Part shown: piece by piece, positions 359 to 63,500 of the stretch
How the letters are laid out: the number at the start of each line of letters is the position of its first letter
How positions within the stretch are numbered: the stretch's first letter is position 1
Origin: Flavobacteriaceae bacterium YJPT1-3
GTDB taxonomy: Bacteria; Bacteroidota; Bacteroidia; Flavobacteriales; Flavobacteriaceae
Direction of reading: 5' to 3'
Assembly: GCA_029866965.1 (NCBI GenBank)
Contig: CP123444.1
Span: forward strand, 3,071,001-3,135,000
Length of the DNA stretch: 64,000 nucleotides
The notes under the pieces: generated by a model
The model's input: the letters and a program-made list of their open reading frames with translations, nothing else
The model's database searches: none
What the model was told of the DNA's origin: nothing
Position numbers and translations under genes: made by a program

Positions 359-2839
359 ATGAAATACCTTATCGCCCTCTGTGGTCTACTCGTTACCCTA
401 TCCGGAGGGAGTCAAGTGGTTGGCAAAGTAACCGATGAGGCAGGTGCCTCCCTGCCTTACGTCAATATCTATTTGCAAGACAGCTACACCGGCACCACCA
501 CCAATGCCGATGGCAATTATAAATTGGAGCTGGAAAAAACCGGGACCTACACCCTGGTCTATCAGTTTTTAGGCTATCAGCGACTGCAAAAAGAGGTCAA
601 CATCGATCGTTTTCCTTACATCTTGAATGTGAGTCTTCAACCGGAGACCACTTCATTGGATGAGGTGGTCGTCTCCTCAGACGTCAATCCTGCCGATCGC
701 ATCATCCGGGAAACCATAGCCAAACGCAAGGCTTATTTGGAGAAGACCGACGCATTTACCGCTGATTTCTACTCTCGCGGACTCTGGCGCATCGAAAACG
801 CCCCTGAGAAAATTCTGGGCCAGGAAATAGGGGATCTGGGCGGCGGCCTCGATTCTACACGCTCCGGCATCATCTACCTCAGTGAAACGATCTCTGAAAT
901 TGCCGTGCGTCGCCCCAATGATTTTGAAGAACGCATCGTGGCCAGCAAGGTAAGTGGCAACGATAACGGCTTCAGCTTCAACAGTGCGCAGGAAGCGAAT
1001 TTCTCCTTCTACGACAACACGGTCGATCTCAATGTTCCCATGGTCTCTCCCATTGCGCGTAACGCTTTTTCCTATTACGACTATCGACTGCTGGGTGCTT
1101 TTTATGAAGAAGGAAAGCTCATCAATAAGATCGAGGTCACTCCCAAGCGTCCTAAAGACCGGGTGTTCAATGGCGTAATCTACATCGTGGAAGACGACTG
1201 GCAACTATACGGACTGGAGCTCAAGACCAACGGGGAAGCCATTCAGGTGCCCGTGGTCGAAAACCTGATTTTCCGGCAGAATTTTAAATACGATCCGAAC
1301 ACCGAACAATGGATCAAGATCTTACAGACCATCGATTTCAGCTTTAAATTCCTGGGCTTCGAAGGCGATGGCCGCTTTACTGCAGGCTATAGCAACTATG
1401 AGTTCGATCCTACATTCTCACGAAACCGCTTTGGTGCAGAAGTGCTCAGTTTTGAGCCCGAAGCGAATAAAAAAGACAGCATTTTCTGGAAAGGGATCCG
1501 CCCGGTACCCCTGACTGACGAAGAGCTGAATGACTACATCAAAAAAGACAGTCTACAAGTCATTCGAAAGAGCGAAAAATACCTGGATTCACTGGACGCA
1601 CGCAGCAATAAATTTTCGCCCTTGTCCCCCGTATTCGGATACACCTACACCAACAGCTACGATCGTTGGCAATTGGCTTTTGAAGGGCCTCTAACCGATA
1701 TTCAGTTTAACACCATCCAGGGCTGGCACGGTACCTTGGGACTCTCCTTCAACAGCTGGAGTGATGAGAATTATACCCGCTATTTTTCCGCTTTCGCGAA
1801 AGCGAACTACGGCTTTTCCGATGATCAGTTACGCTTTACCGCAGGCTTGTCCATGCGCTTCAATCGCACCAATAGGCGCTATCTGGCTCTTTCCGGGGGT
1901 CGTGCCCTTCGGCAATTCAATCCGCAAGAGCCCATTTCACCTTTGATCAATACGGCGGCTTCTTTGAATTTTGAACGCAACTACCTCAAGGCCTACGACC
2001 TGCATTTTGCACGTATCGACTACTCGGAAGAATTGGTCAATGGCTTCCGACTGTACGCCAATCTGGCCTACGAAGAGCGTCAACCTCTGTTCAATACCAC
2101 TGATCAGACTTGGTTTCCTCAAGACGATATCCAGTATACCAGCAACAATCCGCTGGACCCTAGCAATTTTACCAGCGCGGCCATTACCCGGCACGAGATC
2201 GTCAAGACCAGCATCACCGGGCGCTTTCGGTTTGGACAGAAGTACATGAGCTATCCAGACGGCAAATTCAACCTGGAAAATGAAGACTACCCTACCCTCT
2301 TCCTGACCTACGAAAAAGGCTTTGGAGCCTCAGAAGACGGCCTGGAATTCGACCAAGTGCGCATACAGGCGCAGCAGGACCTTAATCTGGGCAATAAGGG
2401 TACTCTGGGCTACAACCTAAAAGCCGGTACCTTTTTCAATGCTGCCAATGAAATCAGCTTTGTCGATTATCAGCATTTTAACGGCAATCAAACCCGGGTA
2501 GGCACCAGCGGTCGTTACCTCAACACCTTTAACCTCATGCCCTATTATGAGCGCAGTACCAACCAGAATTACCTGGAAGGCCATCTGGAACACGATTTTA
2601 AGGGATGGATCCTTGGTAAAATTCCGGGCATCAACCAACTCAATTTCAATCTGATCGCCGGGGCGCACGTCCTCGCCACCCGCGATGCCAAACCCTACTA
2701 TGAATTTTCGGTGGGCATGGACAACATCGGCTGGGGGAAATACCGCCTTCTACGCCTGGATTATGTGCGCTCCTACAACCAGGGTGATGGATTTGGCGCC
2801 CTGATCTTCGGACTCAAGTTTCTTGATTTTCTCAACTAA
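359..2839 (+). CDS. DUF5686 outer-membrane protein with carboxypeptidase-like N-domain
   Basis: An 826-residue predicted outer-membrane protein of unknown function. A short signal peptide (about residues 1-20) is followed by a carboxypeptidase-regulatory-like beta-sandwich (VVGKVTDEAGASLPYVNIYL, to about residue 110), the same N-domain that SusC-type receptors carry. There is no TonB plug; instead a DUF5686 region follows, rich in alternating aromatic strands and ending in hydrophobic FGLKFLDFLN, as expected for a beta-barrel end strand. It directly follows smpB with one base between. It is often found in Flavobacteriia, but its substrate is not known. Position 1790-1803 carries one copy of the iterated palindrome described in the findings. 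The domain call is from pattern recognition; the barrel is inferred. Confidence 0.85.
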   Translation: MKYLIALCGLLVTLSGGSQVVGKVTDEAGASLPYVNIYLQDSYTGTTTNADGNYKLELEKTGTYTLVYQFLGYQRLQKEVNIDRFPYILNVSLQPETTSLDEVVVSSDVNPADRIIRETIAKRKAYLEKTDAFTADFYSRGLWRIENAPEKILGQEIGDLGGGLDSTRSGIIYLSETISEIAVRRPNDFEERIVASKVSGNDNGFSFNSAQEANFSFYDNTVDLNVPMVSPIARNAFSYYDYRLLGAFYEEGKLINKIEVTPKRPKDRVFNGVIYIVEDDWQLYGLELKTNGEAIQVPVVENLIFRQNFKYDPNTEQWIKILQTIDFSFKFLGFEGDGRFTAGYSNYEFDPTFSRNRFGAEVLSFEPEANKKDSIFWKGIRPVPLTDEELNDYIKKDSLQVIRKSEKYLDSLDARSNKFSPLSPVFGYTYTNSYDRWQLAFEGPLTDIQFNTIQGWHGTLGLSFNSWSDENYTRYFSAFAKANYGFSDDQLRFTAGLSMRFNRTNRRYLALSGGRALRQFNPQEPISPLINTAASLNFERNYLKAYDLHFARIDYSEELVNGFRLYANLAYEERQPLFNTTDQTWFPQDDIQYTSNNPLDPSNFTSAAITRHEIVKTSITGRFRFGQKYMSYPDGKFNLENEDYPTLFLTYEKGFGASEDGLEFDQVRIQAQQDLNLGNKGTLGYNLKAGTFFNAANEISFVDYQHFNGNQTRVGTSGRYLNTFNLMPYYERSTNQNYLEGHLEHDFKGWILGKIPGINQLNFNLIAGAHVLATRDAKPYYEFSVGMDNIGWGKYRLLRLDYVRSYNQGDGFGALIFGLKFLDFLN
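1790..1803. repeat. Iterated palindrome GCTTTCGCGAAAGC, copy 1
   Basis: Perfect 14-bp palindrome inside the DUF5686 gene, read there as Ala-Phe-Ala-Lys-Ala. Confidence 0.9.
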
Positions 2840-3676: not shown

Positions 3677-4636
3677 ATGCTAAAAGCTGGCGTTTTGGGT
3701 GCCGGACACCTGGGCAAAATCCATCTCAAACTTTTAAAACAATCTCCCGCTTATGAACTGGTAGGCTTCTTTGACGCCGATCAGGAAGCCAGCGCCAAGA
3801 TCGAATCGGAACTGGGCTACACTTCCTTCCCCACTATGGAAGCCCTCATCGCCGCCTGCGACATGGTGGACGTAGTGACCCCTACCAGCTATCATTTTGA
3901 GTGTGCCAAAAAAGTGATCGAAGCCGGTAAACATCTTTTTATCGAAAAACCCATCACCCAAACCGTAGAAGAAGCTGAAGAACTGCTCGCCCTGGCAAAA
4001 AAACACCGGGTTAAAGGGCAGGTAGGACACGTAGAACGCTTCAATCCGGCCTTTATGGCGGTCAGTCATACCATCAACAATCCCATGTTTATCGAAGCGC
4101 ATCGCCTGGCCGAGTTCAATCCCCGAGGTACTGATGTACCCGTGGTGCTGGACTTGATGATACACGACATCGATGCGATCCTGAGTGTGGTGAAAAGTAA
4201 AGTAAAGCAGATCAGCGCCAGCGGTGTTTCGGTCATTAGTGACACCCCAGACATTGCCAATGCCCGTATTGAATTTGAAAACGGCTGCGTGGCCAATCTG
4301 ACCGCTAGTCGGATCTCCATGAAAAACATGCGGAAATCGCGCTTCTTCCAACGAGACGCCTACATTTCTGTAGATTTCCTCACCAAAAAAGTGGAGGTAG
4401 TGCGTATGAAAGATGCTCCGGAAGATCCGGATGATTTTGCCATGATTCTGCAAAATGCCGAGGGTATCAAAAAACAGATCTATTTTGACAATCCGGAGGT
4501 GAATGCAAACAACGCCATACTGGATGAGCTGGAAGCTTTCGCGAAAGCGATACATGAAGATTCCACCCCGGTCGTCTCCCTGGAACAAGGCACCGATGCG
4601 CTGCGGGTGGCCAAACAAGTCATTGCCAATTTTTAA
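3677..4636 (+). CDS. Gfo/Idh/MocA family NAD(P)-dependent oxidoreductase
   Basis: A 319-residue Rossmann-fold oxidoreductase. The N-terminus MLKAGVLGAGHLGKIHL is the dinucleotide-binding loop. VDVVTPTSYHFECA and the EKPIT motif (GKHLFIEKPIT) are family hallmarks; the Lys of EKP is the usual catalytic residue. The C-terminal half is the GFO_IDH_MocA alpha/beta domain with FENGCVANLTASRIS. The frame is open from 3581, but the first methionine that matches the family is at 3677. A TATTTTTA box at 3654-3661 is a plausible -7 element. The substrate cannot be told from sequence; sugar or inositol derivatives are typical. The next gene follows after 18 bases, so they may form one transcript. Confidence 0.9.
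   Translation: MLKAGVLGAGHLGKIHLKLLKQSPAYELVGFFDADQEASAKIESELGYTSFPTMEALIAACDMVDVVTPTSYHFECAKKVIEAGKHLFIEKPITQTVEEAEELLALAKKHRVKGQVGHVERFNPAFMAVSHTINNPMFIEAHRLAEFNPRGTDVPVVLDLMIHDIDAILSVVKSKVKQISASGVSVISDTPDIANARIEFENGCVANLTASRISMKNMRKSRFFQRDAYISVDFLTKKVEVVRMKDAPEDPDDFAMILQNAEGIKKQIYFDNPEVNANNAILDELEAFAKAIHEDSTPVVSLEQGTDALRVAKQVIANF
4535..4548. repeat. Iterated palindrome GCTTTCGCGAAAGC, copy 2
   Basis: Perfect copy near the 3' end of the Gfo/Idh/MocA gene, read as Ala-Phe-Ala-Lys-Ala. Confidence 0.9.
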
Positions 4637-4654: not shown

Positions 4655-5542
4655 ATGAAAAATATAGCCGTCATTGGCGCAGGCACCATGGGCAACGGAA
4701 TCGCCCATACCTTCGCCCAAAGTGGTTTTAAAGTACAACTCATTGATATCTCACAGGCTGCCCTGGATCGCGGATTGGCAACAATAGAGAAAAATCTGGA
4801 TCGCCAACTCGCCAAAGAGAAAATCACCGAAGCCGAGAAAAACGAAACACTCAACAACATCACTACCCATACCGGGATGGCTAATGGAGTGGAATACGCC
4901 TCTTTGGTGGTCGAAGCGGCTACAGAGAACGTCGATCTGAAATTGAAAATTTTTCGTGACCTGGAAGAGTTCTGTGGAGAAGACGTGATCCTGGCCTCCA
5001 ACACTTCCTCCATATCGATCACCAAGATCGCCTCAGTCACCAAGCGCGCAGACAAGGTGATAGGCATGCACTTCATGAATCCGGTGCCCATCATGAAACT
5101 GGTCGAGATCATTCGCGGGTACAATACCAGTGATGAGACGACACAGATCATCATGGAGCTTTCGCGAAAGCTGGGAAAGACCCCTACCGAGGTCAACGAT
5201 TATCCGGGCTTTGTGGCCAATCGCATTCTTATGCCCATGATCAACGAAGCCATTGAAACCCTCTACAACGGGGTCGCCGGCGTGGAAGAGATCGACACGG
5301 TCATGAAACTAGGGATGGCGCATCCCATGGGTCCGCTACAATTAGCCGACTTTATTGGTCTGGATGTCTGTCATTCCATCCTGGAAGTGATGTACGACGG
5401 TTTTAAAAACCCGAAATACGCACCCTGCCCCCTACTGGTCAACATGGTACAGGCCGGGAAATACGGCGTTAAATCCGGGGAAGGCTTTTATGACTATGCA
5501 CAAAGCCGTAAAGCGGAACAGGTAGCTGCTCAATTTGCATAG
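4655..5542 (+). CDS. 3-hydroxybutyryl-CoA dehydrogenase family enzyme
   Basis: A 295-residue single-domain 3-hydroxyacyl-CoA dehydrogenase that interconverts 3-hydroxyacyl-CoA and 3-oxoacyl-CoA with NAD. GAGTMG at residues 8-13 is the nucleotide-binding loop. Further family motifs are LASNTSSISIT, the GMHFMNPVPIMKLVEII block containing the catalytic His, and NDYPGFVANRILMPMINEA. The C-terminal helical domain ends GKYGVKSGEGFYDY. The length fits the stand-alone Hbd/PaaH type rather than the FadB fusion. The likely role is short-chain fatty acid or butyrate-type metabolism; no partner thiolase or enoyl-CoA hydratase is in the window. Its stop overlaps the start of the next gene. Confidence 0.93.
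   Translation: MKNIAVIGAGTMGNGIAHTFAQSGFKVQLIDISQAALDRGLATIEKNLDRQLAKEKITEAEKNETLNNITTHTGMANGVEYASLVVEAATENVDLKLKIFRDLEEFCGEDVILASNTSSISITKIASVTKRADKVIGMHFMNPVPIMKLVEIIRGYNTSDETTQIIMELSRKLGKTPTEVNDYPGFVANRILMPMINEAIETLYNGVAGVEEIDTVMKLGMAHPMGPLQLADFIGLDVCHSILEVMYDGFKNPKYAPCPLLVNMVQAGKYGVKSGEGFYDYAQSRKAEQVAAQFA
5158..5171. repeat. Iterated palindrome GCTTTCGCGAAAGC, copy 3
   Basis: Perfect copy inside the 3-hydroxyacyl-CoA dehydrogenase gene, read in a second frame as Leu-Ser-Arg-Lys. Confidence 0.9.
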
Positions 5543-7410: not shown

Positions 7411-8057
7411 ACATTAAGGAAAATATTGAGCATTTTAGATCGACTATACCCAATCACGTTTCCCTGTGTGCGGTAAGCAAAACCAAGCCCAACGAAGATC
7501 TGATGGAAGCCTATAAAGCGGGTCAACGCATCTTTGGCGAGAACCGGGTGCAGGAAATGGCTGCAAAAGCAGAGGCCTTGCCAGAAGACATTCAGTGGCA
7601 TATGATTGGCCATGTGCAGACCAATAAGGTCAAGTATATGGCTGCCTTTGTCGATTTGATCCATTCCGCAGACCGACTTAAACTGTTCAAGGAGATCAAC
7701 AAACAAGCAGAAAGCGTCGACCGGATACAAGACGTTTTACTGCAGGTGAAGATCGCTGAAGAAGAAAGTAAATACGGCATGCCTATTAGTGAGGCTATCG
7801 AGTTTCTGGCCGAGCGAAAAGACAAAGAATATCCCAACGTCCGGGTACGCGGACTCATGGGGATGGCCACCTTTACCGATGATCAGGAACAGCTTCAGCG
7901 GGAATTCAAGAGTCTGCAAGCGATCTATGAACGCTTTCGCGAAAGCAACGACCTAAGCATCCTTTCCATGGGCATGAGCGGTGATTATCAACTCGCAATT
8001 GCCTGCGGCAGCAACATGATTCGTGTAGGAAGTGCTATTTTTGGGGCGCGCAAGTAA
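7407..8057 (+). CDS. yggS: YggS/PROSC family pyridoxal 5'-phosphate homeostasis protein
   Basis: A 216-residue PLP-binding TIM-barrel protein. The PLP Lys is in VCAVSKTKPNEDL near the N-terminus; IFGENRVQEM, IQWHMIGHVQTNKVKY, IHSADR and the phosphate-binding LSMGMSGDYQLAIACGSNMIRVGSAIFG end are all diagnostic. Family members bind PLP without known catalysis and affect B6 and amino-acid pools. It starts inside the stop of the DUF1015 gene. A perfect copy of the iterated palindrome lies near the end. Confidence 0.95.
   Translation: MNIKENIEHFRSTIPNHVSLCAVSKTKPNEDLMEAYKAGQRIFGENRVQEMAAKAEALPEDIQWHMIGHVQTNKVKYMAAFVDLIHSADRLKLFKEINKQAESVDRIQDVLLQVKIAEEESKYGMPISEAIEFLAERKDKEYPNVRVRGLMGMATFTDDQEQLQREFKSLQAIYERFRESNDLSILSMGMSGDYQLAIACGSNMIRVGSAIFGARK
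7933..7946. repeat. Iterated palindrome GCTTTCGCGAAAGC, copy 4
   Basis: Perfect copy inside yggS, read in the third frame as Arg-Phe-Arg-Glu-Ser. Confidence 0.9.
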
Positions 8058-10369: not shown

Positions 10370-11273
10370 AAAGTACCTCATTACCGTGGTTGGGCCCACG
10401 GCCATCGGCAAGACGGCCTTGGCGATACAACTGGCACAGCATTTTCAGACCGAAATCATCTCAGCAGATTCGCGCCAGTTTTTTAAAGAGATGCGCATTG
10501 GAACTGCAGTTCCTTCCCAAGACGAGCTCAAAGCTGCTCCGCATCACTTCATACAACACAAATCCATTCATGAAGCCTATACCGTGGGGCAGTTTGAAAA
10601 AGAAGCATTGGAACTATTGGATCGCCTATTCCAGCGACATCAGGTGCTTATCCTCGTGGGGGGATCCGGACTCTATGTGGATGCCGTGCTCAACGGACTG
10701 AATCATTTCCCCAAAGTGCCGGCGACTGTCCGAGAAGAGGTACGGCGCTTGTACAAAGAAAAAGGCCTTAGTGAAATACAGGCCCAATTATTACAACTTG
10801 ATCCAGCTTCAGAGGACAGCGTGGATATGCTGAATCCTCAACGTGTGCTTCGGGCTTTGGAGGTCTGTATGGCTACCGAACAGCCTTTCAGCTCTTTCAA
10901 GAATAAGCCGAAAGCGGAACGCCCCTTTACCGCGATACAGATCGGTCTTCAGGCCGAGCGATCCGTGATCTACGATCGCATCAATAAACGGGTCGATCTG
11001 ATGGTGGAGGAAGGCCTGGAAGCAGAAGCTCGTGCACTCCATCCCCATCGGAAGTTGAACGCTTTGGTGACCGTAGGCTATCGCGAACTGTTTGCCTATT
11101 TCGATGGAGTGTATAATTTCGCGAAAGCGATAGAAGAGATCAAGAAAAATACCCGTCGTTTCGCTAAAAGGCAACTGACCTGGTATCGTAAAAACGAGCA
11201 GATCCATTGGTTTCCTTTTCAGACTCCCCTGGCAGCTGTTCTCGAACATATCCAAAAAAAAATGTCCCGCTAA
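10359..11273 (+). CDS. miaA: tRNA dimethylallyltransferase
   Basis: MiaA adds a dimethylallyl group to N6 of A37 in tRNAs reading codons that begin with U. The 304 residues show the P-loop GPTAIGKTALA near residues 10-20, SADSRQFFKEMRIGTA, HHFIQHKSIHEAYTVGQFE, LVGGSGLYVDAVLNG, NPQRVLRALEV, and the closing FAKRQLTWYRKNEQIHWF. The start overlaps the channel gene by 11 bases. The stop codon forms the loop of a terminator hairpin shared with the convergent response-regulator gene. A degenerate palindrome copy lies at 11117-11126. Confidence 0.97.
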   Translation: MKPKKYLITVVGPTAIGKTALAIQLAQHFQTEIISADSRQFFKEMRIGTAVPSQDELKAAPHHFIQHKSIHEAYTVGQFEKEALELLDRLFQRHQVLILVGGSGLYVDAVLNGLNHFPKVPATVREEVRRLYKEKGLSEIQAQLLQLDPASEDSVDMLNPQRVLRALEVCMATEQPFSSFKNKPKAERPFTAIQIGLQAERSVIYDRINKRVDLMVEEGLEAEARALHPHRKLNALVTVGYRELFAYFDGVYNFAKAIEEIKKNTRRFAKRQLTWYRKNEQIHWFPFQTPLAAVLEHIQKKMSR

Positions 11274-15208: not shown

Positions 15209-16207
15209 TTAATCAAAAAATAAGTGGGGGAACCGCTCTTCAGGATGCTGTTTTAAAATATGCAAAGCCCACCACGAGGTTAAATAACCGGTACCATAGC
15301 CATAAAATTGTACGCCTACAGCCCGTAAGGCCAGTACTGCTGTAGTCCAGCTTTTGGTCTGCATCCAGGCTACCAAAAAAATAGCCGTCAAATACCCGAT
15401 CAATAGGGTGATGGGCCACCACCAACCTGCAACGAGCAGGAGCAGCGAGAGCAGCGTAAAGAGCAGGGCCAGGGTGGGCAACCAAAAGGTAGCTTTCGCG
15501 AAAGCAGGATACCGCTGATTTAGAATGGGACGCACCAATCCGAACTTATGCACCTGCGTATAGAATTTACTCCAACTCAGGCGCCGTTTGTGGTAGACAT
15601 AGGCATTGGGAAATAATCGCGTCTCGTAGCCCAATTCCCAAAGCTTAAAAGTCAATTCCGGATCTTCCCCGGGATGGATCTTCCCAAAGCCGCCACTTTG
15701 AGTGAAGGCTTCTCGAGAAAGTCCCATATTAAAGCTTCGCGGCTGAAACCGACTCAGGCTGCGGCTGCCACCCCGCACCCCACCGGTGGTCAAAAAAGAG
15801 GTCATGCTGAAATTGATCGCCTGCTGGAGGGCGGAAAAATCAGGATGGGCGTCATCAGGACCGCCAAAACAATGCACAAAGCTTTCCTGCAGTTCATAGT
15901 CTACGGCTTTGAGATAATGCGAAGGTAGCACGCAGTCAGAGTCCAGGATCAAAAAATAATCGCTCTGGGCCCGTTCCATCCCGTAATTGCGGGAAGGTCC
16001 GGGACCGGTATTTTCTTTGAAATAATAGCTGATGTGCAGTTGGGGAAAGGCAGCAACCACCTCTTTGGCCGTCAATTTCGAGCCGTCTTCTACGATAACC
16101 ACCTCAAAATCCTTATCAAAGTCAAGCTGGGCCAAGCTCTCCAGCAATTCTCTGACCTCCTCCGGACGATTGTACACAGGAACAATAAAGGAATAGGCAT
16201 ACTGCAT
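15209..16207 (-). CDS. Family 2 glycosyltransferase, membrane-anchored
   Basis: A 332-residue GT-A glycosyltransferase. The N-terminal part has FIVPVYNRPEEVRELLESL, VVIVEDGSK, ENTGPGPSRNYG and the metal-binding DSDC. An acidic motif GEDPELTFKLWELGY marks the acceptor side. The C-terminal third holds two or three hydrophobic segments (WLPTLALLFTLLSLLLLVAGWWWPITLLIGYLTAIFLVAW in part), so it is held at the inner membrane. The sugar and acceptor cannot be told. The start ATG is at 16207; the next gene follows after nine bases. Confidence 0.9.
   Translation of the reverse strand: MQYAYSFIVPVYNRPEEVRELLESLAQLDFDKDFEVVIVEDGSKLTAKEVVAAFPQLHISYYFKENTGPGPSRNYGMERAQSDYFLILDSDCVLPSHYLKAVDYELQESFVHCFGGPDDAHPDFSALQQAINFSMTSFLTTGGVRGGSRSLSRFQPRSFNMGLSREAFTQSGGFGKIHPGEDPELTFKLWELGYETRLFPNAYVYHKRRLSWSKFYTQVHKFGLVRPILNQRYPAFAKATFWLPTLALLFTLLSLLLLVAGWWWPITLLIGYLTAIFLVAWMQTKSWTTAVLALRAVGVQFYGYGTGYLTSWWALHILKQHPEERFPHLFFD
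15492..15505. repeat. Iterated palindrome GCTTTCGCGAAAGC, copy 5
   Basis: Perfect copy in the glycosyltransferase gene, read on the minus strand as Ala-Phe-Ala-Lys-Ala. Confidence 0.9.
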
Positions 16208-16269: not shown

Positions 16270-19200
16270 CTAGCGCTTGAGAATACGATGACGCTGCAGA
16301 CGATCTCCACTTCCTGTCTCCAACAAATACATGCCGCTGGATAGGTTCTGGAAAGGGATTTCAAAGCTTTGCGTTTCTACCTGCTGCTGAAAGAGAAGTT
16401 TACCGCTTAGATCGTACAACTTCACCCTGCCCAGAGGCTGCTCTGACTGTAAGTACAGGAAGTCCTTGACAGGATTGGGGTAGAATTGCAGGGAGGTCAG
16501 GGTACGATCGTCCAAACTGAGAATACTCTCGTCATACGCCCCAATGCTAAATTCTCCCCCACCAGTTCCAGCTCCGAAGACCCGAACGGTAAGTAAAGTT
16601 CCCGGGGTCAAATCAGACAATTCCGCTTTCGCGAAAGCGTCCAATCCACCCCCATCATCGCATAAGATCTCTACTAAAGACCCACAATTTCCGGTATATA
16701 CACTCAGTGCCGTTCCGGTAAGAGGTTGCTCCCCGCCGGCCTGGGTTTCTATCGTCAGGTTACCGGAGTCCGGCACAGTCACTTCAAAGAAAATATCCCT
16801 GCTGGAGGCATCAAAACCCCCGCAGGTCGGCGTCGGAGTGGTCGACGAATTACCGGCAGTCAAGGTACTGCGCAGACTAGCCGCCTCTTCAAAATTATTC
16901 TTCGGATTTAAGGTCACTGCCGCATCACAATCGTCATTAGCAAGCACACAGCTCACTTGAGCTTCCCAACCGCTGCGGTTGAAGGAAACATCAGAACGGA
17001 ACACTACCGTAAGAGTCCCGGCTTCTGCTGTAGAAATAAAAGTAGCGGGGCCGGTAACTTCAGCAGATAATTGAGTACCACCGGTACCTATCCCCTCATA
17101 AACTTCGAGATAATCAAAATTGGCTTCCAAATCGACTTGGGTAAATTCCAAAAGTATGGATTGCCCGGGCTGATCGGGACCAAAATAATAGAATTCATTC
17201 TCCCCATCTCCATAGTTGCCATTTGGACCGCCACTGTCAAAAAAGTCTTGTCCACAACTGATAAACGTACTAAAGTCGGCCGCGACGCCATAAACACTGG
17301 TCCCTGCACTTTGCGGATCACAAAGTGCACGAACAAAGGCCTCATAGGAGGTGTTTGAAAGGAGTCCGTTTAATTTTACTTTGAACGTAACCGCATCGAC
17401 CACTCCGGTCAGAACGGGGGTATCCGAATAGGGGTTGTCCCCTGCATTCACGACCACATATTCATAGCCGGAAGCTCCATTGGCATTGGCTTCCCAGGTT
17501 AAGGCGGCCGTATCCGGACCGGTGGGCATGACCTCCGTATTCTGAGGTGAATCGCAATTACCGATTGTGACAAAGAAAGCCGGATCGTAAAGAAATTGAG
17601 CTTCACAATTGGCGATCACATAAGCCTCATAGGCCGTTCCGGGAACAAGTTCAGAGACAATTACGTTAGTCTCATTGGTAGCGGTCTGACCGGATTGAAC
17701 AGGCGTCGCGGTCAGGGGATCTGAGCCGGCAGCGAAGACTGCCCAGCGGTATCCATCGGGGTCAAAATCAATATCGTTCCAGTCCAGTTGCACCGAGCTT
17801 TCGCTGATAGCACTGGCCGTAATTTCGGGATCAATGCAGAAACTCTCTTCGATGGAAACATCATCGATCAGGATATCATTAAAGAAAGGGGAACCACTAG
17901 CCGTGGTGATGTTCGTAAAGAGTACCTGTACCGGACCACTAACGGTAAAATCTGCGCCTAAATTGATCACAAACTGTTGCCAGCCGGCTTCGCCCTGCGT
18001 TTGCTGATTGATCGCCGTGAAAACCGACAAGGCTGCTCCGTCAAAAACCGATACTTCCAGGGTATTGTATGAATTAGGTTCATTGCTATTGCTGCTAAAC
18101 ACCCAAAAACTGATAATGGGGTTCTCCAGAGCAGACACATCCACCAAGGGCGATGCCAGTGTCGAGCGATCTCCATTTTCGTTGACTGAGCTATCGATCC
18201 AGGCAAAAGCATTACTGTCCAAACTGCCGCTGGTATGGTCAGGGGCATCCAAGGCGTCATAATCAGGCTCTTGATTGTACTGCCAGGCCTCCTCTCCCCG
18301 CTCCCGCCAGCACACGGGCGTAATATTGGTATCAAAGGTTTGCACCAGGGGTGCGCTAACCGGGTCACATAAGGTAAAAATAGCTTCTGCTGCACTCAAC
18401 CCACTTACCCCTTCCCCACCGCAATCACTGCGGATGTAAAGATCATAATTAGTCTCTGCGTTAAGACCATTCAGGGTGGTAGCAACGGTTCCTGCAGGAA
18501 GGCTTGCGGTTACCTGTGGCGTACCTGTTTCCGTATTGACACCACTTAAATAGGCTAAAAGTTCATAGCCTGAGGCTGCATTATCCACCGGAGTCCAAGA
18601 GAGCTGCACAAACGTATTGCCTACAAAATCAACACTTAGTGCAGCAGGAGCCTGACAAACGGGTGTGGTGGTAAACGATGCAGGACCGGCCCATTGGCTT
18701 TCTTCATCCGTACAGCGGGCGCGAATGTAAAAATCATAGGTCGTCTCCGCAGTCAAGTCCGTGACCAAAAGTTCCTCCTCGCCTGCCATAGCTGATAGCT
18801 GCTGGACTGGATCCAAGTCAGGATCGTCTCCGGTCAGTGTCACAGTAATGGAATAGCCATTGGTAGCCGTATCCGACCCGCGCCAACTCAAAGTCGCTTC
18901 GGTAGCCAAAATGTTGGATGTCTGGAGGTCAATTGGAATGGCACAGGAAGCGCAGCTCACCGCGGTAGTAAACGAGGTATCCGAAACATCGGGATTGGAC
19001 ACTTCAAGCAGGCTATTTCCTTCCGAATCAAATAGGGTGTAGCTGATCTCCTCCGGAAAATCACCGTTTTGAATCCAGCTCAGTTCCAGGTTGTCTCCTT
19101 CACTGACTTCCAGTACAAGCAGTTCAAATTCTCCATCCGCTAAGGTGTAGGGAGTTGTCGCTCCGTTGATCGTGATATTGAGCAAACCACCATTCCAGCC

Positions 19201-35572: not shown

Positions 35573-36187
35573 ATGAGCACGGAAGAAACAGATGCCTATA
35601 AAACGTTGGCAAAGGCCAGTCCGGAGGTACTTTTTAAGGACCGGGGCAGTAAGTTTATGGGTCTGGCCTTTCCCGTGCGCACTGAAACAGAGATTTCCAC
35701 CTACCTGGATCGCGTAAGGCAGGACCATCCCAAAGCCACTCACCACTGCTACGCCTGGCAATTGGGAGTGCAGAACGTGCAGTATCGAGCCAACGATGAT
35801 GGAGAGCCTTCCAACAGCGCAGGCATGCCCATCTATGGTCAAATCCAATCTTTTGAGGTAACGAATATTCTGGTCGTGGTCGTGCGCTACTACGGGGGAA
35901 CCAAGTTAGGGGTTGGCGGACTCATCAACGCGTATCGCACCACAGCACAAATGACCTTAGAGGCTGGAAAAATAATCGTTCGCTATCTGGAATGTGAACT
36001 CGAATTGACTTTTGAATATCCGTTACTCAATACCGTCATGCGCGTGATCAAAGAAGAGGAACTCGATATTGCCGAACAACAGATGGAACTGAATTGTCGA
36101 ATACGGATACGCTTTCGCGAAAGCGAACTCCAACGCATTCAAGGGCGTTTTAAAGCCATCTACGGAGTAAAGGTAAAAGAATCCTGA
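35573..36187 (+). CDS. YigZ/IMPACT family protein
   Basis: A 204-residue protein of the UPF0029/IMPACT family. The N-terminal domain has KDRGSKFMGLAFPV, HHCYAWQLG, YRANDDGEPSNSAGMPIYGQI and NILVVVVRYYGGTKLGVGGLINAYRTTA, all diagnostic; a small C-terminal domain follows. The function is not settled; eukaryotic IMPACT proteins act in translation control. It starts one base after the transporter stop and ends by overlapping the convergent thioesterase by 28 bases. Confidence 0.93.
   Translation: MSTEETDAYKTLAKASPEVLFKDRGSKFMGLAFPVRTETEISTYLDRVRQDHPKATHHCYAWQLGVQNVQYRANDDGEPSNSAGMPIYGQIQSFEVTNILVVVVRYYGGTKLGVGGLINAYRTTAQMTLEAGKIIVRYLECELELTFEYPLLNTVMRVIKEEELDIAEQQMELNCRIRIRFRESELQRIQGRFKAIYGVKVKES
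36111..36124. repeat. Iterated palindrome GCTTTCGCGAAAGC, copy 10
   Basis: Perfect copy near the end of the yigZ-like gene, read as Arg-Phe-Arg-Glu-Ser. Confidence 0.9.
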
Positions 36188-43581: not shown

Positions 43582-44113
43582 GGATATTGATCAATTGATA
43601 AAGCAATTCGTTTTTATAGCTTCCTTGTAAACGTCTCCAGTCCTTTTTTATTCCCACAAGAACAAAACCTACTTTCTCAAAAAGGCGCTGACTGGCCGTA
43701 TTCTCTTCCAAAATATTGGCATACAGTTGATGCAGATCCAATTGCTTAAAAGCGTATGCCTTCAGAATTTCCAGAGTTTCCAGAGCATAGCCATGCCTGC
43801 GATCTTCAGCTTCAATGATCAGGATCCCCACTCCGGCTCTGAAATGACGGGGCGAAAAGTCAAATAGATCAACTAATCCCAACACGCGTTGGGTTTCGCG
43901 TAAGCAAATCACAAATCGCAGTTGCTTTGCTTCGTAGAGGTCCTTATAAGCATTGGCGATATACTCCTGAAGAAGATGCCGGCCGTAGGGAGCTTGCGTT
44001 CCACTCAATTCCCAATATTCTTCCCGGTTCTCGATATCGTAGAGCATATCGATGTCTTCCGGCTCTAAAGCCCTCAGAAATATCGTATCTCCTACTAAGG
44101 TTGGTGCTCCCAT
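43571..44113 (-). CDS. GNAT family acetyltransferase, RimJ/RimL type
   Basis: A 180-residue GNAT enzyme of the Acetyltransf_3 group. FLRALEPEDIDMLYDIENREEYWELSG is the N-terminal part; GVGILIIEAEDRRHGYALETLEILKAYAF has the acetyl-CoA loop region, and LHQLYANILEENTASQRLFEKVGFVLVG is the characteristic end motif. Relatives acetylate ribosomal proteins, spermidine or amino sugars. It lies between dapF and mltG with overlaps of 19 and 11 bases, which suggests cotranscription but not substrate. Confidence 0.88.
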   Translation of the reverse strand: MGAPTLVGDTIFLRALEPEDIDMLYDIENREEYWELSGTQAPYGRHLLQEYIANAYKDLYEAKQLRFVICLRETQRVLGLVDLFDFSPRHFRAGVGILIIEAEDRRHGYALETLEILKAYAFKQLDLHQLYANILEENTASQRLFEKVGFVLVGIKKDWRRLQGSYKNELLYQLINIHVH

Positions 44114-44883
44114 ACGCCTTCAAATACAAATGTTGCCGGTCCTATTAAATGAACCTGCTCATACCCTTTATCTGTTTTTTGGAAGCGAACTTCCAAAGAT
44201 CCCCCCGGCGTATGGAGCCGAACGGAATTACGCACTACCTGCCCGGTATAATGCATCGCCAAAGCCACGGCAGTGACCCCGGTACCACAACTGAGCGTCT
44301 CGTCTTCTACTCCGCGTTCGTAAGTTCGCACTCCAAAAGTATCGGAAGCCTGCTTACTGACAAAATTGACATTGGTACCTACAGCACCGTAACGATCACT
44401 GTAGCGCACCGCTGCCCCCTCCTTGGCAACATCAACCTGTGCCAGGTCTTCAACCATGATAATGTGATGAGGCGAACCGGTATCAAGAAACAGAAAATCA
44501 GCAGTCTCCTGAATTTGGGTTACATCCTGCATCTGCAAGGCCACCCTGCCATCTTCCAGGAGTTCAGCCCGATGTAAGCCATCAACCGCCCGAAAGGTCG
44601 TCTGCTGCTCAATGATTCCTAACGCTTTCGCGAAAGCGACCAGACACCGACCTCCGTTTCCACACATGGTGCTGGGATTCCCGTCGGCATTGTAGTACAC
44701 CATCTTAAAATCGACCTCCTCATCCAGTTCCAACAGAATGAGTCCGTCAGCGCCTATGCCAAATTTACGGTCACAGAGGTGCCGGATCAGTTTGGTATTG
44801 TTTTTGAAAAATACCGATTGTCTGTTGTCAATGATAACAAAGTCATTCCCGGTACCTTGGTATTTAAAAAAGGGCAATGTCAT
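44095..44883 (-). CDS. dapF: Diaminopimelate epimerase
   Basis: DapF converts LL- to meso-diaminopimelate for lysine and peptidoglycan. The 262 residues have FFKYQGTGNDFVIIDN, the first catalytic Cys in TMCGNGGRC, and the second in ETLSCGTGVTAVALA. Length is normal. A perfect -7 box (TAACTTTG) lies 19 bases upstream. The gene overlaps the acetyltransferase gene by 19 bases and leads the dapF-GNAT-mltG set. Confidence 0.96.
   Translation of the reverse strand: MTLPFFKYQGTGNDFVIIDNRQSVFFKNNTKLIRHLCDRKFGIGADGLILLELDEEVDFKMVYYNADGNPSTMCGNGGRCLVAFAKALGIIEQQTTFRAVDGLHRAELLEDGRVALQMQDVTQIQETADFLFLDTGSPHHIIMVEDLAQVDVAKEGAAVRYSDRYGAVGTNVNFVSKQASDTFGVRTYERGVEDETLSCGTGVTAVALAMHYTGQVVRNSVRLHTPGGSLEVRFQKTDKGYEQVHLIGPATFVFEGVWEHQP
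44624..44637. repeat. Iterated palindrome GCTTTCGCGAAAGC, copy 12
   Basis: Perfect copy in dapF just after the first active-site region, read as Ala-Phe-Ala-Lys-Ala. Confidence 0.9.
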
Positions 44884-50568: not shown

Positions 50569-51786
50569 ATGAACGCATTCCGCCTGTATCTGCTTCTATC
50601 AATGATAGGCTTCTTTGGAGGTGGATATTTCGTGCAGGCTCAGCCATCGAGGTCGGCTCCACTCGATGCCCCTTTTGGAGTGAAGAAGCTTTATCTGCAA
50701 GCTAGTTTTGGTTTAGTCCGTTACCACTTTACCAACGAGCTACTACGAGGAGATGTGGCGGCCGGATCCATCACCAACACCACCGCCTTTTCAGGACGAT
50801 TTCTTCTGGGCTACCATCTCAGTCCGCACTGGGATATTCAGTTTGGGGTGCTCCGTCCGGCAGCCTGGGTGTCTTACGAAGACTTCAACATTCCCTTGAT
50901 CGACCGCACGGTCTGGATCAATGTTTGGAGCCTGTCATCAAAATATAACTTTAAGTGGAGTGAGCGGATATCCGCTTTCGCGGAAGCGGGACTCAGCAAT
51001 GTCGCCCGGGAAGGATTTGACTTTGAAGGGTCGAGTGTGGCGCCTGATGCACAGTACCTCTACCCGCTCTTTGGTGCAGGAGTAATGTATCGGTTGAACG
51101 ATAAGTTTGGACTCAGTTTGAGCACCGTATACATCCCACCAAACCAAAAGGAAAACCAACCAACCATCAATCAGCTGACCGCCGGATTGATGTTCAGTGT
51201 TGGTGAAATTTCGGAGGCGGAGCTAGAAGCCAAAGCAAGCAGTCCGTATTTCTTTCCGAGAAACACCCTACAGTTAGGATACACCACCAACAGCTTTGGT
51301 TTCGATATCAATCGACAATTCAGTGGAGGATTGCCTACAAGCCTACCCATCTTTTGGCTAGGCGACGTACGCGTGGCGCAGGGATGGATGATCAATTATC
51401 AACGCACCCTCTTTAGAAGCCGTAAGCATTTTTCACTAAGTTGGGGAGCTAGCGTAGCGCAGTACAAATCGACCCAGGGAGATGCCTTCTACGCCTTATC
51501 CGCTTTTCCGGTCGTACGCTGGTGGTTCTGGAGGCCGGCTTTCATGGACCTCTATTTTAATTATTCAGTGATCGGACCAGCGTTCATCTCCCAATCCCGA
51601 ATCGATGCTATTGATACCGGAACTCAGGCGACCTTTCAGGATTTTATGGGTATAGGTGCCTGGTTGGGCGATCAACGTCAATGGAACATCGACCTGCGGA
51701 TCACTCATTATTCCAATGGAAACCTATTTACTGAAAATGCAGGAGTAGCCGTACCCCTGATGATCAGCTTGGGTCGTTCTTTTTGA
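50569..51786 (+). CDS. Two-barrel outer-membrane protein with PagL-like C-domain
   Basis: A 405-residue outer-membrane protein with a signal peptide ending VQAQ (about residue 25). The first half (to about residue 215) has the alternating strands of a small OmpW/OmpA-type barrel (LYLQASFGLVRYHF to TAGLMFSVGE). The second half, after a short linker with FPRNTLQLGYTT, ends in LRITHYSNGNLFTENAGVAVPLMISLGRSF, the His-x-Ser-Asn motif of PagL-type lipid A deacylases. The frame is open from 50455, but the ATG at 50569 directly precedes the signal peptide. Fusion of a porin-like barrel to a PagL-like barrel is unusual to me. Activity is inferred from motif alone. Confidence 0.75.
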   Translation: MNAFRLYLLLSMIGFFGGGYFVQAQPSRSAPLDAPFGVKKLYLQASFGLVRYHFTNELLRGDVAAGSITNTTAFSGRFLLGYHLSPHWDIQFGVLRPAAWVSYEDFNIPLIDRTVWINVWSLSSKYNFKWSERISAFAEAGLSNVAREGFDFEGSSVAPDAQYLYPLFGAGVMYRLNDKFGLSLSTVYIPPNQKENQPTINQLTAGLMFSVGEISEAELEAKASSPYFFPRNTLQLGYTTNSFGFDINRQFSGGLPTSLPIFWLGDVRVAQGWMINYQRTLFRSRKHFSLSWGASVAQYKSTQGDAFYALSAFPVVRWWFWRPAFMDLYFNYSVIGPAFISQSRIDAIDTGTQATFQDFMGIGAWLGDQRQWNIDLRITHYSNGNLFTENAGVAVPLMISLGRSF

Positions 51787-58180: not shown

Positions 58181-58993
58181 ATGGCATTTACCAAAACTAC
58201 CGAGCAGGAATCCTTGTATCAGGACCTGGAACAGAAAGACATCAAGACGCTATTGACCGAGATCAATCAAGAGGATGCCAAGGTACCGCAGGTGGTGGCG
58301 CAAGCAATACCTCAATTGGAAGCCCTGATCAGCGTCACCGTAGAAAAGCTGAAGCAAGGTGGCCGTCTGTTCTATTTGGGTGCGGGTACCAGCGGTCGTT
58401 TGGGCATTGTTGACGCCTCTGAATGTCCACCCACCTTCGGCGTGTCTGAAGACCTGGTCGTTGGCATCATGGCCGGAGGGGATCAGGCCATTCGTAAAGC
58501 CGTAGAATTTGCCGAAGACAGTGAAAATCAAGGCTGGGAAGATCTTAAAAAACATCAGATCTCCTCGGTTGATGTGGTTGTCGGGATTGCCGCATCAGGC
58601 ACTACCCCTTATGTGATCGGAGCGCTGCAAGCATGCAACAAGGCCGGGATCGTCACCGGCTGCATCACCTGTAACGCCGGGAGTCCGCTTTCGCGAACAG
58701 CGAACTACCCCATCGAAATCGTAGTGGGTCCGGAATACGTCACCGGAAGCTCACGTATGAAAGCCGGAACCGCACAAAAACTGGCCCTCAACATGATCTC
58801 TACGAGCGTGATGATCCAACTGGGTCGCGTAAAAGGGAATCGTATGGTGGACATGCAGCTCAGTAATAACAAATTGATGGATCGAGGAACAAAAATGATC
58901 GCCCAGGCCTTAGGGATTAACGAAGCGCGTGCCCTGGAATTGCTCCAGAAACACGGTAGCGTGCGCAAAGCCATTGACCATGGGAACCAATAA
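58181..58993 (+). CDS. murQ: N-acetylmuramic acid 6-phosphate etherase
   Basis: MurQ cleaves the lactyl ether of MurNAc 6-phosphate during cell-wall recycling. The 270 residues have LFYLGAGTSGRLGIVDASECPPTFG with the catalytic Glu in SECPP, VGIMAGGDQAIRKAVEFAED, VVGIAASGTTPYVIGAL and GPEYVTGSSRMKAGTAQKL. It is slightly shorter than the E. coli enzyme (298). The next gene starts inside its last codons, so translation is coupled. Confidence 0.95.
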   Translation: MAFTKTTEQESLYQDLEQKDIKTLLTEINQEDAKVPQVVAQAIPQLEALISVTVEKLKQGGRLFYLGAGTSGRLGIVDASECPPTFGVSEDLVVGIMAGGDQAIRKAVEFAEDSENQGWEDLKKHQISSVDVVVGIAASGTTPYVIGALQACNKAGIVTGCITCNAGSPLSRTANYPIEIVVGPEYVTGSSRMKAGTAQKLALNMISTSVMIQLGRVKGNRMVDMQLSNNKLMDRGTKMIAQALGINEARALELLQKHGSVRKAIDHGNQ

Positions 58994-60522: not shown

Positions 60523-63500
60523 ATGTATTTGAACAATCACTCGTACTACAGTCTGCGCTACGGCACCCTCTCCGAAACTGACCTGCTGGAGCTGGCCCAA
60601 GATTTTGGCTGTCGCGAACTGGCATTGACCGACATCAACACCACTTCTGCCTGCCTGAACTTCGTTAAAAAAGCACAACAACTGGGTATCCGGCCGCTGC
60701 TGGGAGTCGATTTCAGAAACGAGGGCAATCAACGCTGCTATGTGATGCTAGCCAGGAATAATCAGGGTTTTCTGTCGATCAATCGCTTCCTCTCTGCGCA
60801 TTTGCATGAAAAAAAAGCATTCCCGGAACAGGCTCCCGATCTGGAAGATGCTTTCATTATCTACCCTTTTGAGCAACTGGTCCGTTTGGAAAAAGCGAGT
60901 TTCAGTCCCCGAGAATACATTGGCGTAAGCGTTCGCGATCTACGCCGACTCCCTTTTTCTCGCTTTAAAGAATACCAAGACCGACTCGTCATTCTGCAGA
61001 CCGTGAGTTTTTGCGATAAGCGGGATTTCAATACGCACCGCCTTTTACGTGCCATTGACACCAACACCTTGCTGAGCAAGCTGTCCGAACGCGAACAGGG
61101 ACATCCGGAAGATCAGATGATCGCGCCTGAGTTATTGACTGCTGCTTTTGAAGATCATCCGCACATCATTGAGAATACCCACGCACTGCTGATGGAATGC
61201 AGCATTGACTTTGATTTTTCCAAAGGCAAACCCTCCCAGAATAAGAAAACCGTATACGGCAGTCTGGAAGCCGACTATAAACATCTGGTCGAGCTGTGTA
61301 AAAAGGGACTCCCACAACGCTATGACCGCATCACCTATACGATTAAACGCCGCCTGGTCAAAGAGCTTTTATTAATCAAACAACAACAGTTCGTCTCCTT
61401 TTTTCTGATCAACTGGAAGATCATTGAATACGCCCGAAGTCGGGGTTATTTCTACGTAGGTCGCGGTAGTGGAGCCAACAGTATAGTCGCCTACCTGCTG
61501 CGCATCACTGATGTAGATCCCATTGAACTGGACCTGTACTTTGAACGCTTTATGAATCTGTACCGGGCCACTCCCCCCGATTTTGATATTGACTTCTCCA
61601 CCTGGGATCGGGAAGATGTGACCCGTTATATTTTTGAAGCCTTTGGTGCTCAGGGGCAGACGGCACTGCTGGGTTCCTATGTCACCTTTCAACACAGTGG
61701 TGCCGTACGCGAACTCGGGAAAGTATTCGGACTTCCCAAGCACGAGATCGACCGCCTGAGCGACGGACGCTACCATCCCCACAAGTTGGACAAACTCCAT
61801 CGTCTGGTACTCAAGTATGCAAGCTACCTGCACGGCCGACCCAATTACATCAGTATCCATGCGGCCGGTATACTGATTACTGAAAAGCCCATTCATTATT
61901 TTTCGGCCACCCATCTGCCGCCCAAAGGATTCCCCACCGTACAGTTTGATATGCATATAGCAGAAGATGCCGGCCTGCATAAGTTTGATATTTTGGGCCA
62001 ACGCGGACTGGGAAAGATCAAAGATGCTATTGCCATCATCCAAGAAAATCGTCCGGAAGTCGAGCTGCCCGATATTCACAACGCCCAGCCATTTTTTAAA
62101 GACCCCACCATCAACGCCATGATCGCGCGGGCGGAATGTATTGGCTGTTTTTACGTAGAGTCGCCCGCCATGCGTATGCTATTGCGCAAACTGGAAGTAC
62201 GAGATTATCTTACCCTGGTTGCGGCTAGTTCCATCATTCGGCCGGGGGTTGCTAAAAGCGGGATGATGCGGGAATACATCTTACGGCACAAATATAAGGA
62301 GCGGCGTAAAGAGGCCCACCCGGTGCTTTGGGACATCATGCCTGATACCTATGGCGTCATGGTCTATCAGGAAGATGTGATCAAAGTCGCCCATCACTAC
62401 GCCGGTCTCGATCTGGGAGAAGCCGATGTGCTGCGCCGTGGAATGAGCGGGAAATACCGTTCGCGCGAAGAGTTTCTACAGGTCAAAGCAAAATTCAAGA
62501 GCAACTGCCTGGCCCGTGGAGAGCAAGAAGCCATGGTAGATGATGTGTGGCGACAGATCGAAAGTTTTGCCGGTTACGCTTTCGCGAAAGGACACTCCGC
62601 CTCCTATGCCGTAGAATCGTATCAAAGCCTGTTTCTGAAATGCTACTACCCACTGGAGTATATGGTGGCGACCATCAATAATGGCGGAGGATTCTATCGG
62701 GTGGAGACCTATGTGCATGAGGCCCGTATGTGCGGCGCTCAGATACACCCGCCCTGCATCAATCGCAGTGAAGTGGAGACCATCATCCGCGGAAGCGATA
62801 TTTTCCTGGGCTTTCAACACCTACAGGGGTTCGAAAAGAAAAATATGCTGCGTATACTCAGCGCACGGACGGAGGGGTCGTTTGAATCCTTTGATGATTT
62901 TGTCGATCGCGTACCCATGAGTATAGAACAAATGGATATTCTGGTTCGCATCAATGCGCTTCGCACTTTGAATGAAGATAAACGAGCCCTGCTCTGGGAA
63001 GCTTATTACAAAGAGAATACCGCGCCGGTCAATGAATTGCAACAGGAGTTCTTTAAAGTCTCTATGAAAGACTTCCAACTCCCTAATTTTTCGATCGACC
63101 AACTGGAACATGCATTTGACCAACTCGAACTTTTGGGATTTCCGCTTTACGATCCTTTTATTCTATTAGAACAACCGCCCACTTCCTCTTTACTGGCCAG
63201 CGATCTGAGGAGTCACCTCCATCGGCAAGTGACGATTTACGGCTATTTGGTCACAGCTAAGAATACCAGTACTTCAAAAGGAGACCGCATGTTTTTTGGA
63301 ACCTTTCTCGATCGCTCCGGTTATTGGTTGGATACGGTCCATTTCCCTCCGGTAGCCAAAAAATATCCGTTTAGGGGAAAAGGAATCTATCGTATACACG
63401 GTAAAGTAGTGGAAGAATTTGGCTTTTTGACAATTGAAGTTCAGCAGATGGAGCGTATGGCCTATGTGGCCGACCCTCGTTTTGATCCCACCTATAATGC

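What the first reader, a model, noticed from the sequence alone, without database searches (positions are those of the whole stretch)
1790..62591. A 14-bp palindrome GCTTTCGCGAAAGC is iterated inside genes across the whole window
Twelve perfect copies occur at 1790, 4535, 5158, 7933, 15492, 16625, 20875, 32384, 34244, 36111, 39092 and 44624. The 10-bp core TTTCGCGAAA also occurs at 11117, 21486, 29678 and 62580, and near copies at 50974 and 58687. A random 14-mer would be expected far less than once in 64 kb (about 0.0002). All perfect copies are within genes, on both strands, and in all three frames (AFAKA in seven, RFRES in three, LSRK in two), so protein selection does not explain them. This is like the HIP1 palindrome of cyanobacteria. 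Its role could be a DNA-binding, methylation, uptake or chromosome-organisation site, or a drive of a repair or mutation process. I do not know whether it has been studied in this family.
Basis: partly seen in the sequence, partly recalled or inferred. Interest (0 to 1): 0.85.

Follow-up and report, generated by a model that had tools for sequence, protein, structure and literature searches.

The report
Evenly spaced genome-wide self-DNA palindrome
One 14-letter DNA palindrome is repeated 408 times, at unusually even spacing, in this bacterium's genome, and hundreds of times in two other genera of its family but hardly at all in most of the relatives checked; it likely works as a password that marks DNA as 'own' when such bacteria take up DNA from outside.

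Summary
GCTTTCGCGAAAGC has 12 perfect copies in the window and 408 in the whole 3.16-Mb genome (letter-reversed control 0). Of 397 genomes of the family only five, in three genera, are rich in it (408-857 copies; next highest 19); the nearest sampled relative of the own genome is poor. Some poor genomes hold clusters, on related islands. In rich genomes sites lie more evenly than chance (spacing CV 0.42-0.69 against 0.95-0.99), occur in all frames and anywhere in genes, override protein sequence, and are kept: 25 of 26 aligned sites perfect at 90% DNA identity. The motif is longer than 14 bp: T/G-rich, C-poor arms reach about 18 bp outward, without covariation between arms, so it looks like a dimer-binding site on double-stranded DNA, not a hairpin. 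Two DNA-methyltransferase classes, an extra ParB and a type IV pilus ATPase are not shared by the rich genomes. Best explanation (confidence 0.37): a palindromic DNA-uptake sequence of the pilus-independent flavobacterial transformation machinery. Main rival: site of a chromosome-organising protein. No receptor was identified, and no gene tracks the motif. No paper found in the library describes it. New variant of a known kind.

The parts
1790..1803 (.). perfect copy, in the ORF 359-2839 (+), AFAKA
4535..4548 (.). perfect copy, in the ORF 3581-4636 (+), AFAKA; G228 keeps the peptide with 2 DNA mismatches
5158..5171 (.). perfect copy in a 3-hydroxybutyryl-CoA dehydrogenase-like gene, LSRK; 623 bp from its neighbour
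7933..7946 (.). perfect copy in a YggS-family gene, RFRES; same column and frame as a perfect site in G228
11115..11128 (.). AATTTCGCGAAAGC, core with 2 outer mismatches
15492..15505 (.). perfect copy in a glycosyltransferase-like gene (-), AFAKA where the three relatives differ
16625..16638 (.). perfect copy in a gene with a T9SS sorting domain (-), AFAKA
20875..20888 (.). perfect copy in recN (-), AFAKA; same column and frame as in G228 recN, absent from 29 other recN sequences
21484..21497 (.). TTTTTCGCGAAAGC, second, imperfect site in recN
29678..29687 (.). 10-bp core only
32384..32397 (.). perfect copy in a prmC gene (-), LSRK; 2 mismatches at the aligned place in G228
34244..34257 (.). 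perfect copy in a HAD-hydrolase-like gene, AFAKA
36111..36124 (.). perfect copy in a YigZ-family gene, RFRES
39092..39105 (.). perfect copy in a T9SS-sorted PQQ-dehydrogenase-like gene, RFRES
43892..43905 (.). GGTTTCGCGTAAGC, 2 mismatches
44624..44637 (.). perfect copy in the ORF 44095-44883 (-), AFAKA; G167 keeps AFAK with 3 DNA mismatches
50974..50987 (.). GCTTTCGCGGAAGC, 1 mismatch
58687..58701 (.). GCTTTCGCGAACAGC, near copy with one extra base
62578..62591 (.). GCTTTCGCGAAAGG, 1 mismatch

Best explanation
The palindrome GCTTTCGCGAAAGC, present 408 times at unusually even spacing in this 3.16-Mb genome, likely works as a DNA-uptake (self-recognition) sequence: a predicted symmetric receptor of the pilus-independent transformation machinery would bind it on DNA outside the cell, and fragments carrying it would be taken up and recombined more often. 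Shown: number, spacing, arms, conservation, sporadic distribution, presence on islands and phage contigs, and a gene pair in all five rich genomes that looks like two of the flavobacterial transformation genes. Inferred: that uptake is the process; that biased uptake built the copies by point changes, least where coding opposes them and where a neighbour site already lies on the same fragment; that rich genera share one uptake 'dialect'; that genomes losing the receptor keep a few decaying copies, and that islands in poor genomes came from rich hosts. The receptor is not identified; the DUF5689 protein and the ~950-aa protein next to it are candidates only.
For: Copy number and control. Spacing: G000 n=81 CV 0.69 (null 0.99, P 0.0002), G010 n=30 0.50, G264 n=40 0.42, G416 n=21 0.63 (P 0.016), G228 n=15 0.45 (P 0.0009), with 0 gaps under 1 kb in these five stretches; with more stretches 2 of 221 gaps are under 1 kb, 36.5 expected. 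For H. [quoted passage not shown] here too the core has arms. Retention at homologous places: 25 of 26 aligned sites at 89.7% identity; by gene position 4 of 6 testable G264 sites in G416, 2 of 8 G000 sites in G228, 0 of 5 in G264. No marked preference for spacer type or part of gene. Substitution, not insertion, in recN. DUF5689 next to a protein with a carboxypeptidase-regulatory domain, the make-up of R. anatipestifer RS04920/RS04915, essential for its transformation (PMC8459023, abstract and sections 19-21), stands in all five rich genomes (domains of the second protein scanned in G000 only). R. columbina prefers its own DNA (PMC7965970, section 16).
Against: Known uptake sequences (USS, DUS) are not palindromes (PMC1939737, passages). 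R. columbina and R. anatipestifer are evidently not rich in this motif: their three commonest 10-mers are A-rich with 196-301 copies (PMC7965970, table 3), so self-preference in the group need not rest on it. DUF5689 is in 32 of 32 genomes searched, rich and poor, and neither tree of the gene pair groups the rich genomes (4 and 3 changes), so no gene tracks the motif. Density (one per 4-8 kb) is below that of USS (about 1 per kb). Phage contigs, one Mu-like, carry it too, which uptake drive explains less directly. Sequence-specific uptake has not been tested in any motif-rich strain that I could name.
Confidence: 0.37

Rival explanations
1. Binding site of a chromosome-organising or segregation protein: a dimer loads at each palindrome, contacts or bends the arms and acts over a few kb, so even coverage is selected.
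For: Long two-sided footprint without arm covariation, even spacing, even spread along the chromosome (20 stretches: mean 2.35 per 20 kb, variance 1.5). Even spacing of USS was itself once read as a sign of a role in replication, repair or compaction (Karlin et al., as reported in PMC1939737, passages). A nucleoid role has been proposed for HIP1 (Xu et al. 2018, recalled; not held).
Against: Each rich genome has one ParB, of 300-321 aa. Islands and phage contigs carry the sites; most relatives do without. No binder identified.
Confidence: 0.26
2. Self mark read inside the cell: sites protect resident DNA from a nuclease or defence system, as Chi does for RecBCD, so chromosome, islands and temperate phages all gain them.
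For: Chromosome, islands and phage contigs all carry sites a few kb apart.
Against: Chi-type sites are short and directional (recalled). No such system was looked for.
Confidence: 0.15
3. HIP1-type mark: an orphan methyltransferase recognises an inner palindrome and methylation-linked mismatch repair ratchets nearby sequence to the full motif (Elhai's model, PMC4390886).
For: Palindrome, high iteration, change by substitution, repulsion of neighbours. One-off copies show a mild excess at the outermost base (4 of 13 in g11, 6 of 20 in G000, where 1 in 7 would be even). CGCG is under-represented outside the motif (154 against 230.7 in g11, 962 against 1174 in G000).
Against: No PF00145 match in G000 and G264, no PF01555 match in G264, G416 and G228, so neither class serves all five; TCGCGA is only 1.3-1.4 times expectation outside the 14-mer. 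Other methyltransferase classes were not tested.
Confidence: 0.13
4. Regulatory or transcript-level element (terminator, RNA hairpin, operator).
For: The core could fold as a hairpin; over-represented in spacers in g11; 11 of 50 g11 spacer sites are between convergent genes, which make up 15% of spacer length.
Against: Otherwise spacer sites follow spacer length; in-gene sites are uniform along genes (26, 26, 24, 27, 22 of 125); arms do not covary; the T-rich side is upstream, not downstream.
Confidence: 0.02

Closest known systems
HIP1 (GCGATCGC) and alternate HIPs of cyanobacteria (PMC4390886: abstract and parts 1-2 of 3 of the discussion read)
   Same: Perfect palindrome, many copies, in and between genes, arises by substitution, sporadic loss.
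   Different: 14-bp core with ~18-bp arms; one per 4-8 kb, not about one per kb; even spacing; no C5 or beta-class methyltransferase common to the rich genomes; inner hexamer hardly enriched by itself.
USS of Pasteurellaceae and DUS of Neisseriaceae (PMC7811141, PMC1939737: passages)
   Same: Hundreds of copies, perfect core common, arms beside the core (USS), relatively even spacing; DUS maps serve to spot foreign ICEs (PMC7371117, abstract) as the palindrome spots islands here.
   Different: Palindromic; lower density; four of five rich genomes have no T4P/T2SS ATPase over the family cut-off; uptake untested.
parS/Noc-type sites
   Same: 14-16 bp palindromes with TTTC/GAAA halves (recalled).
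   Different: Hundreds of evenly spread copies; no extra ParB in the rich genomes; different spacing of the halves (recalled).

Membership tests
HIP1-class highly iterated palindrome | Palindrome strongly over-represented genome-wide | tested here: met
HIP1-class highly iterated palindrome | Methyltransferase specific for part of the motif present in rich genomes | tested here: inconclusive
   PF00145 and PF01555 not common to the five rich genomes; PF02086, PF02384, PF07669 not tested; specificities unknown
HIP1-class highly iterated palindrome | One-off copies deviate mainly at the outer bases | tested here: inconclusive
   outermost base 4 of 13 in g11 (position 6: 5 of 13) and 6 of 20 in G000; a mild excess, small numbers
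DNA uptake sequence (USS/DUS) | Preferential uptake of DNA that carries it | not testable with these tools
   needs an uptake assay
DNA uptake sequence (USS/DUS) | Over-representation with relatively even spacing | tested here: met
DNA uptake sequence (USS/DUS) | Non-palindromic, oriented core | tested here: not met
   perfect 14-bp palindrome
DNA uptake sequence (USS/DUS) | Type IV pilus uptake machinery | tested here: not met
   PF00437 over cut-off only in G264 of the five rich genomes; R. anatipestifer transforms with other genes (PMC8459023)
parS/Noc-type site | Cognate extra ParB paralogue | tested here: not met
   one ParB of 300-321 aa in each of the five rich genomes

The most novel reading that the evidence does not exclude
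The first uptake sequence of Bacteroidota and the first palindromic one: a 14-bp core with ~18-bp arms, read by a pilus-free surface receptor, shared as one 'dialect' by separate genera, gained and lost across the family, and carried by metal-resistance islands and phages, so that sites record who exchanges DNA with whom.
Probability: 0.32. Interest if true: 0.88.

Novelty: new variant of a known kind. Interest (0 to 1): 0.77.

Why it matters
If it is an uptake sequence, self-DNA preference by motif arose once more, without type IV pili and with a palindrome, and transformation in Flavobacteriaceae gets a defined ligand with which to find the unknown receptor. If it is a chromosome-organising site, it is a genome-wide scaffold that appears and disappears between genera. 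Either way the even spacing, and site-rich and site-free relatives with the same gene order, make a natural experiment on a question open since HIP1: what builds and keeps such repeats.

Tried and rejected
Chance or codon use: rejected. Peptide selection as the general cause: rejected, with two sites where the peptide outlasts or precedes the motif (4535, 44624). Insertion of a small mobile repeat: rejected for recN, where the 31 aligned sequences have no gap at the site. Hairpin or cruciform: arms do not covary. Terminator or operator. C5 and beta-class methyltransferases, extra ParB, T4P ATPase: not common to the rich genomes. DUF5689 as a gene that tracks the motif: not so. Naming the organism: the one genome-contig scan warned that the window's own genome may be left out, and gave four loci, the best from Winogradskyella. 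Named plasmids and phages with the extended motif: nothing longer than 20 matching letters. Island DNA against PLSDB plasmids and one phage stretch against INPHARED: no match.
Full report
What was checked. The window lies at 3071001-3135000 of a one-contig genome of 3,163,819 bases that holds 408 perfect copies and 536 within one mismatch; the same letters read backwards give 0 and 5. In 464 kb (20 spaced 20-kb stretches, plus the window) I counted 59 perfect, 20 one-mismatch, 28 two-mismatch and 50 three-mismatch copies; apart from its own sub-palindromes nothing of 8 to 14 bp is comparable. Of the 59, 51 lie in ORFs in all three frames (27, 14, 10) and 8 outside.

Whose genome. The proteins include T9SS-sorted ones, and the best named match to RecN is a Winogradskyella (48%), so Bacteroidota, likely Flavobacteriaceae; the genome itself is unnamed.

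Distribution. Of 397 genomes drawn from the family, 79 have at least one perfect copy, but only five have hundreds: G000 (own, genus g1) 408; G010, G264, G416 (g11) 578, 664, 609; G228 (g225) 857. The next highest are 19, 17 and 16. By RecN the nearest to G000 are G167 and G351 (60%), which hold 9 and 6 copies; G228 is at 51% and G264 at 44%. Over 21 window proteins found in all four, G000 is about equally far from poor G167 (67.2% identical) and rich G228 (66.1%), and further from G264 (58.2%); columns that split the four two by two favour G000 with G167 against G228 with G264 (142, against 113 and 111; best in 1935 of 2000 gene resamplings, a parsimony count without rate correction). Trees of two neighbouring proteins from 19 genomes (one of 20 dropped, cut by a contig end) do not unite the rich ones (4 and 3 changes; in the second tree the well-supported branches force only 1). 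So the rich genomes are not one closed clade in this sample, but one old gain with several losses is not excluded.

Copies in poor genomes. I fetched 11 stretches from eight poor genomes, chosen because their copies are clustered. Ten of the 11 are related to each other by DNA (L211 has no match); eight proteins scanned from three of them include CzcA/CusA pumps, copper and cadmium P-type ATPases, a multicopper oxidase and a 600-aa ParB. In the higher-copy poor genomes, all 16 copies of G099 lie in 78 kb and 12 of 17 in G074 in 38 kb. Where two islands align below 80% identity, 54 of 113 directed site comparisons are perfect in both, against 2.2 expected, and 2.3% for random 14-mers (pairs are counted in both directions and islands share ancestry, so these are not independent). 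I infer that the islands spend much of their history in rich hosts. G351 has six scattered copies; of the nine in G167, three are on one contig, two of them 2446 bp apart, a spacing also seen in the islands, and six are elsewhere.

Spacing. Sites avoid each other. CV of gaps: G000 0.69 (81 sites, 1-600 kb), G010 0.50 (30), G264 0.42 (40), G416 0.63 (21), G228 0.45 (15), where uniform placement gives 0.95 to 0.99; P from 0.016 (G416) to below 0.0001 (G010, G264) in 20,000 placements. In a larger pool 2 of 221 gaps are under 1 kb, 36.5 expected: 623 bp in the window and 523 bp in G228. Islands are less strict (933-bp pairs; 222 bp in G099 and G309). Counts per 20 kb along the chromosome of G000 are even (mean 2.35, variance 1.5).

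Shape of the motif. In gene orientation the G000 sites have C (0.71) before and G (0.55) after the 14-mer, T/G on the left and A/C on the right. Pooling each site with its reverse complement, the 82 g11 sites show C at -1 (0.92), T at -3/-4, T at -10 and -12/-13, and C at 0.01-0.15 from -4 to -18 (background 0.18); G228 and G000 show a weaker form (the pooling itself imposes symmetry, the unpooled list in the same call shows both arms). Left and right arms do not covary. This fits two independent half-sites contacted by a symmetric protein on double-stranded DNA, and does not fit a hairpin or cruciform.

Evolution. G010 and G264 are 89.7% identical where aligned; 26 of 30 G010 sites align and 25 are perfect in G264; in the other direction 28 of 40 align and 25 are perfect (0.897 to the 14th power is 0.22). 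By gene position, 20 of 21 testable G010 sites are kept in G264, 4 of 6 G264 sites in G416, 2 of 8 G000 sites in G228 and 0 of 5 in G264; G228 and G264 share 0 of 5 and 0 of 7 in the two directions. The two shared by G000 and G228 are in yggS and recN, at the same column and frame; two more G000 sites have a two-mismatch form in G228. G167, with the same gene order, has 0 of 8 alignable sites within two mismatches and no site in 80 kb. Shared places mean common descent, or repeated gain where the sequence was close already. So sites turn over slowly while density and spacing are kept. Sites override protein sequence: in recN and in the glycosyltransferase the motif replaces residues that relatives fill otherwise; but G228 keeps AFAKA at site 4535, and G167 AFAK at 44624, without the perfect DNA motif. 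Against coding cost, g11 sites are over-represented outside ORFs (G010 15 of 30 against 3.3; G264 23 of 40 against 5.0 and 7 of 21 against 1.8; G416 6 of 21 against 1.2) and 3 of 9 against 0.6 in G228; in G000 the excess is slight (8 of 59 against 5.2) and in the window 0 of 12.

Not regulation. Spacer sites roughly follow spacer length whatever the gene orientation (g11: 13 divergent, 11 convergent, 26 tandem, for length shares of 0.28, 0.15, 0.57), and 125 in-gene sites are spread evenly from start to end.

Candidate machines tested in 32 genomes (five rich, 27 others). C5 methyltransferases: none in G000 and G264, present in G010, G416, G228. PF01555: none in G264, G416, G228, present in G000 and G010. 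ParB: one in each rich genome. T4P/T2SS ATPase over cut-off: 8 of 32, among the rich only G264. DUF5689: 32 of 32. Outside the 14-mer TCGCGA is 19 against 14.8 in g11 and 117 against 84.6 in G000; TTCGCGAA 39 against 8.5 in G000, consistent with decayed or growing sites; CGCG is below expectation in both. This speaks against a HIP1-type methylation origin, but other methyltransferase classes were not searched.

Why uptake is my first choice. Riemerella anatipestifer transforms without recognisable pili; eight genes are essential, ComEC, DprA, ComF, RecA and four others, among them a DUF5689 protein and a neighbouring predicted outer-membrane protein with a carboxypeptidase-regulatory domain (PMC8459023, abstract and sections 19 to 21). 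A gene pair of that make-up stands in all five rich genomes, in G000 beside an Exo_endo_phos_3 nuclease; I had no R. anatipestifer sequence to compare. In R. columbina, equal amounts of its own DNA, but not of R. anatipestifer or E. coli DNA, lowered transformation; tenfold amounts of the foreign DNAs did too (PMC7965970, section 16). That paper's table of common 10-mers (A-rich, at most 301 copies in the two Riemerella species) means that those species are not rich in this palindrome, which weakens the link. Biased uptake predicts what is seen: hundreds of copies, arms, even spacing (PMC7811141, passages), gain by substitution with a coding cost, a shared dialect among genera, and foreign islands visible by their sites (as in Neisseria, PMC7371117, abstract). 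None of this proves uptake. A nucleoid protein is the main rival.

Phages. The 22-letter form gave 13 stretches. Among ten proteins scanned from stretches with arms are a baseplate hub, a tail sheath, a tape measure, a terminase and a transposase, the last 51% identical to that of Winogradskyella phage Peternella.

Literature. No paper in the library holds the 14-mer; TTTCGCGAAAG appears once, in a paper on ThiH by its title (listing only). Searches for uptake sequences in flavobacteria or Bacteroidota and for over-represented palindromes in Flavobacteriaceae listed no report of this motif that I recognised (listings, apart from the papers named). Subscription papers and preprints are not held, so priority is not established.

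Noticed in passing
L352:924-8429 (own genome 1223424-1230929): Two Exo_endo_phos_3 nuclease genes lie on either side of the ~970-aa CarboxypepD_reg gene and the DUF5689 gene. In 17 of the 18 rows printed a 349-368-aa ORF lies upstream on the other strand; only the two of G000 were scanned.
   Followed up: partly
L205-L210, L212-L215; G099:C3:32331-110029; G074:C6:1640-39803: Related metal-resistance islands (RND pumps, P-type ATPases, multicopper oxidase, 600-aa ParB) in many genomes of the family, visible through clusters of the palindrome; the 933-bp and 2446-bp site spacings recur.
   Followed up: partly
L129, L093, L089, L106, L075: Tailed phage contigs, one with a Mu-like transposase, with motif sites about 3-6 kb apart where there are several.
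   Followed up: partly
window 1-64000; G228:C15, G264:C3, G167:C4: Gene order of the window is largely conserved across genera at about 50-65% protein identity.
   Followed up: partly
G000:C1:860981-861964: The only PF01555 match of the own genome, in a 641-aa open frame; the size recalls a type III Mod subunit.
   Followed up: no
L352-L371: The DUF5689 protein evolves much faster than its neighbour: G264 against G416, same genus, 40% against 65% identity, as a surface protein under changing demands might.
   Followed up: no
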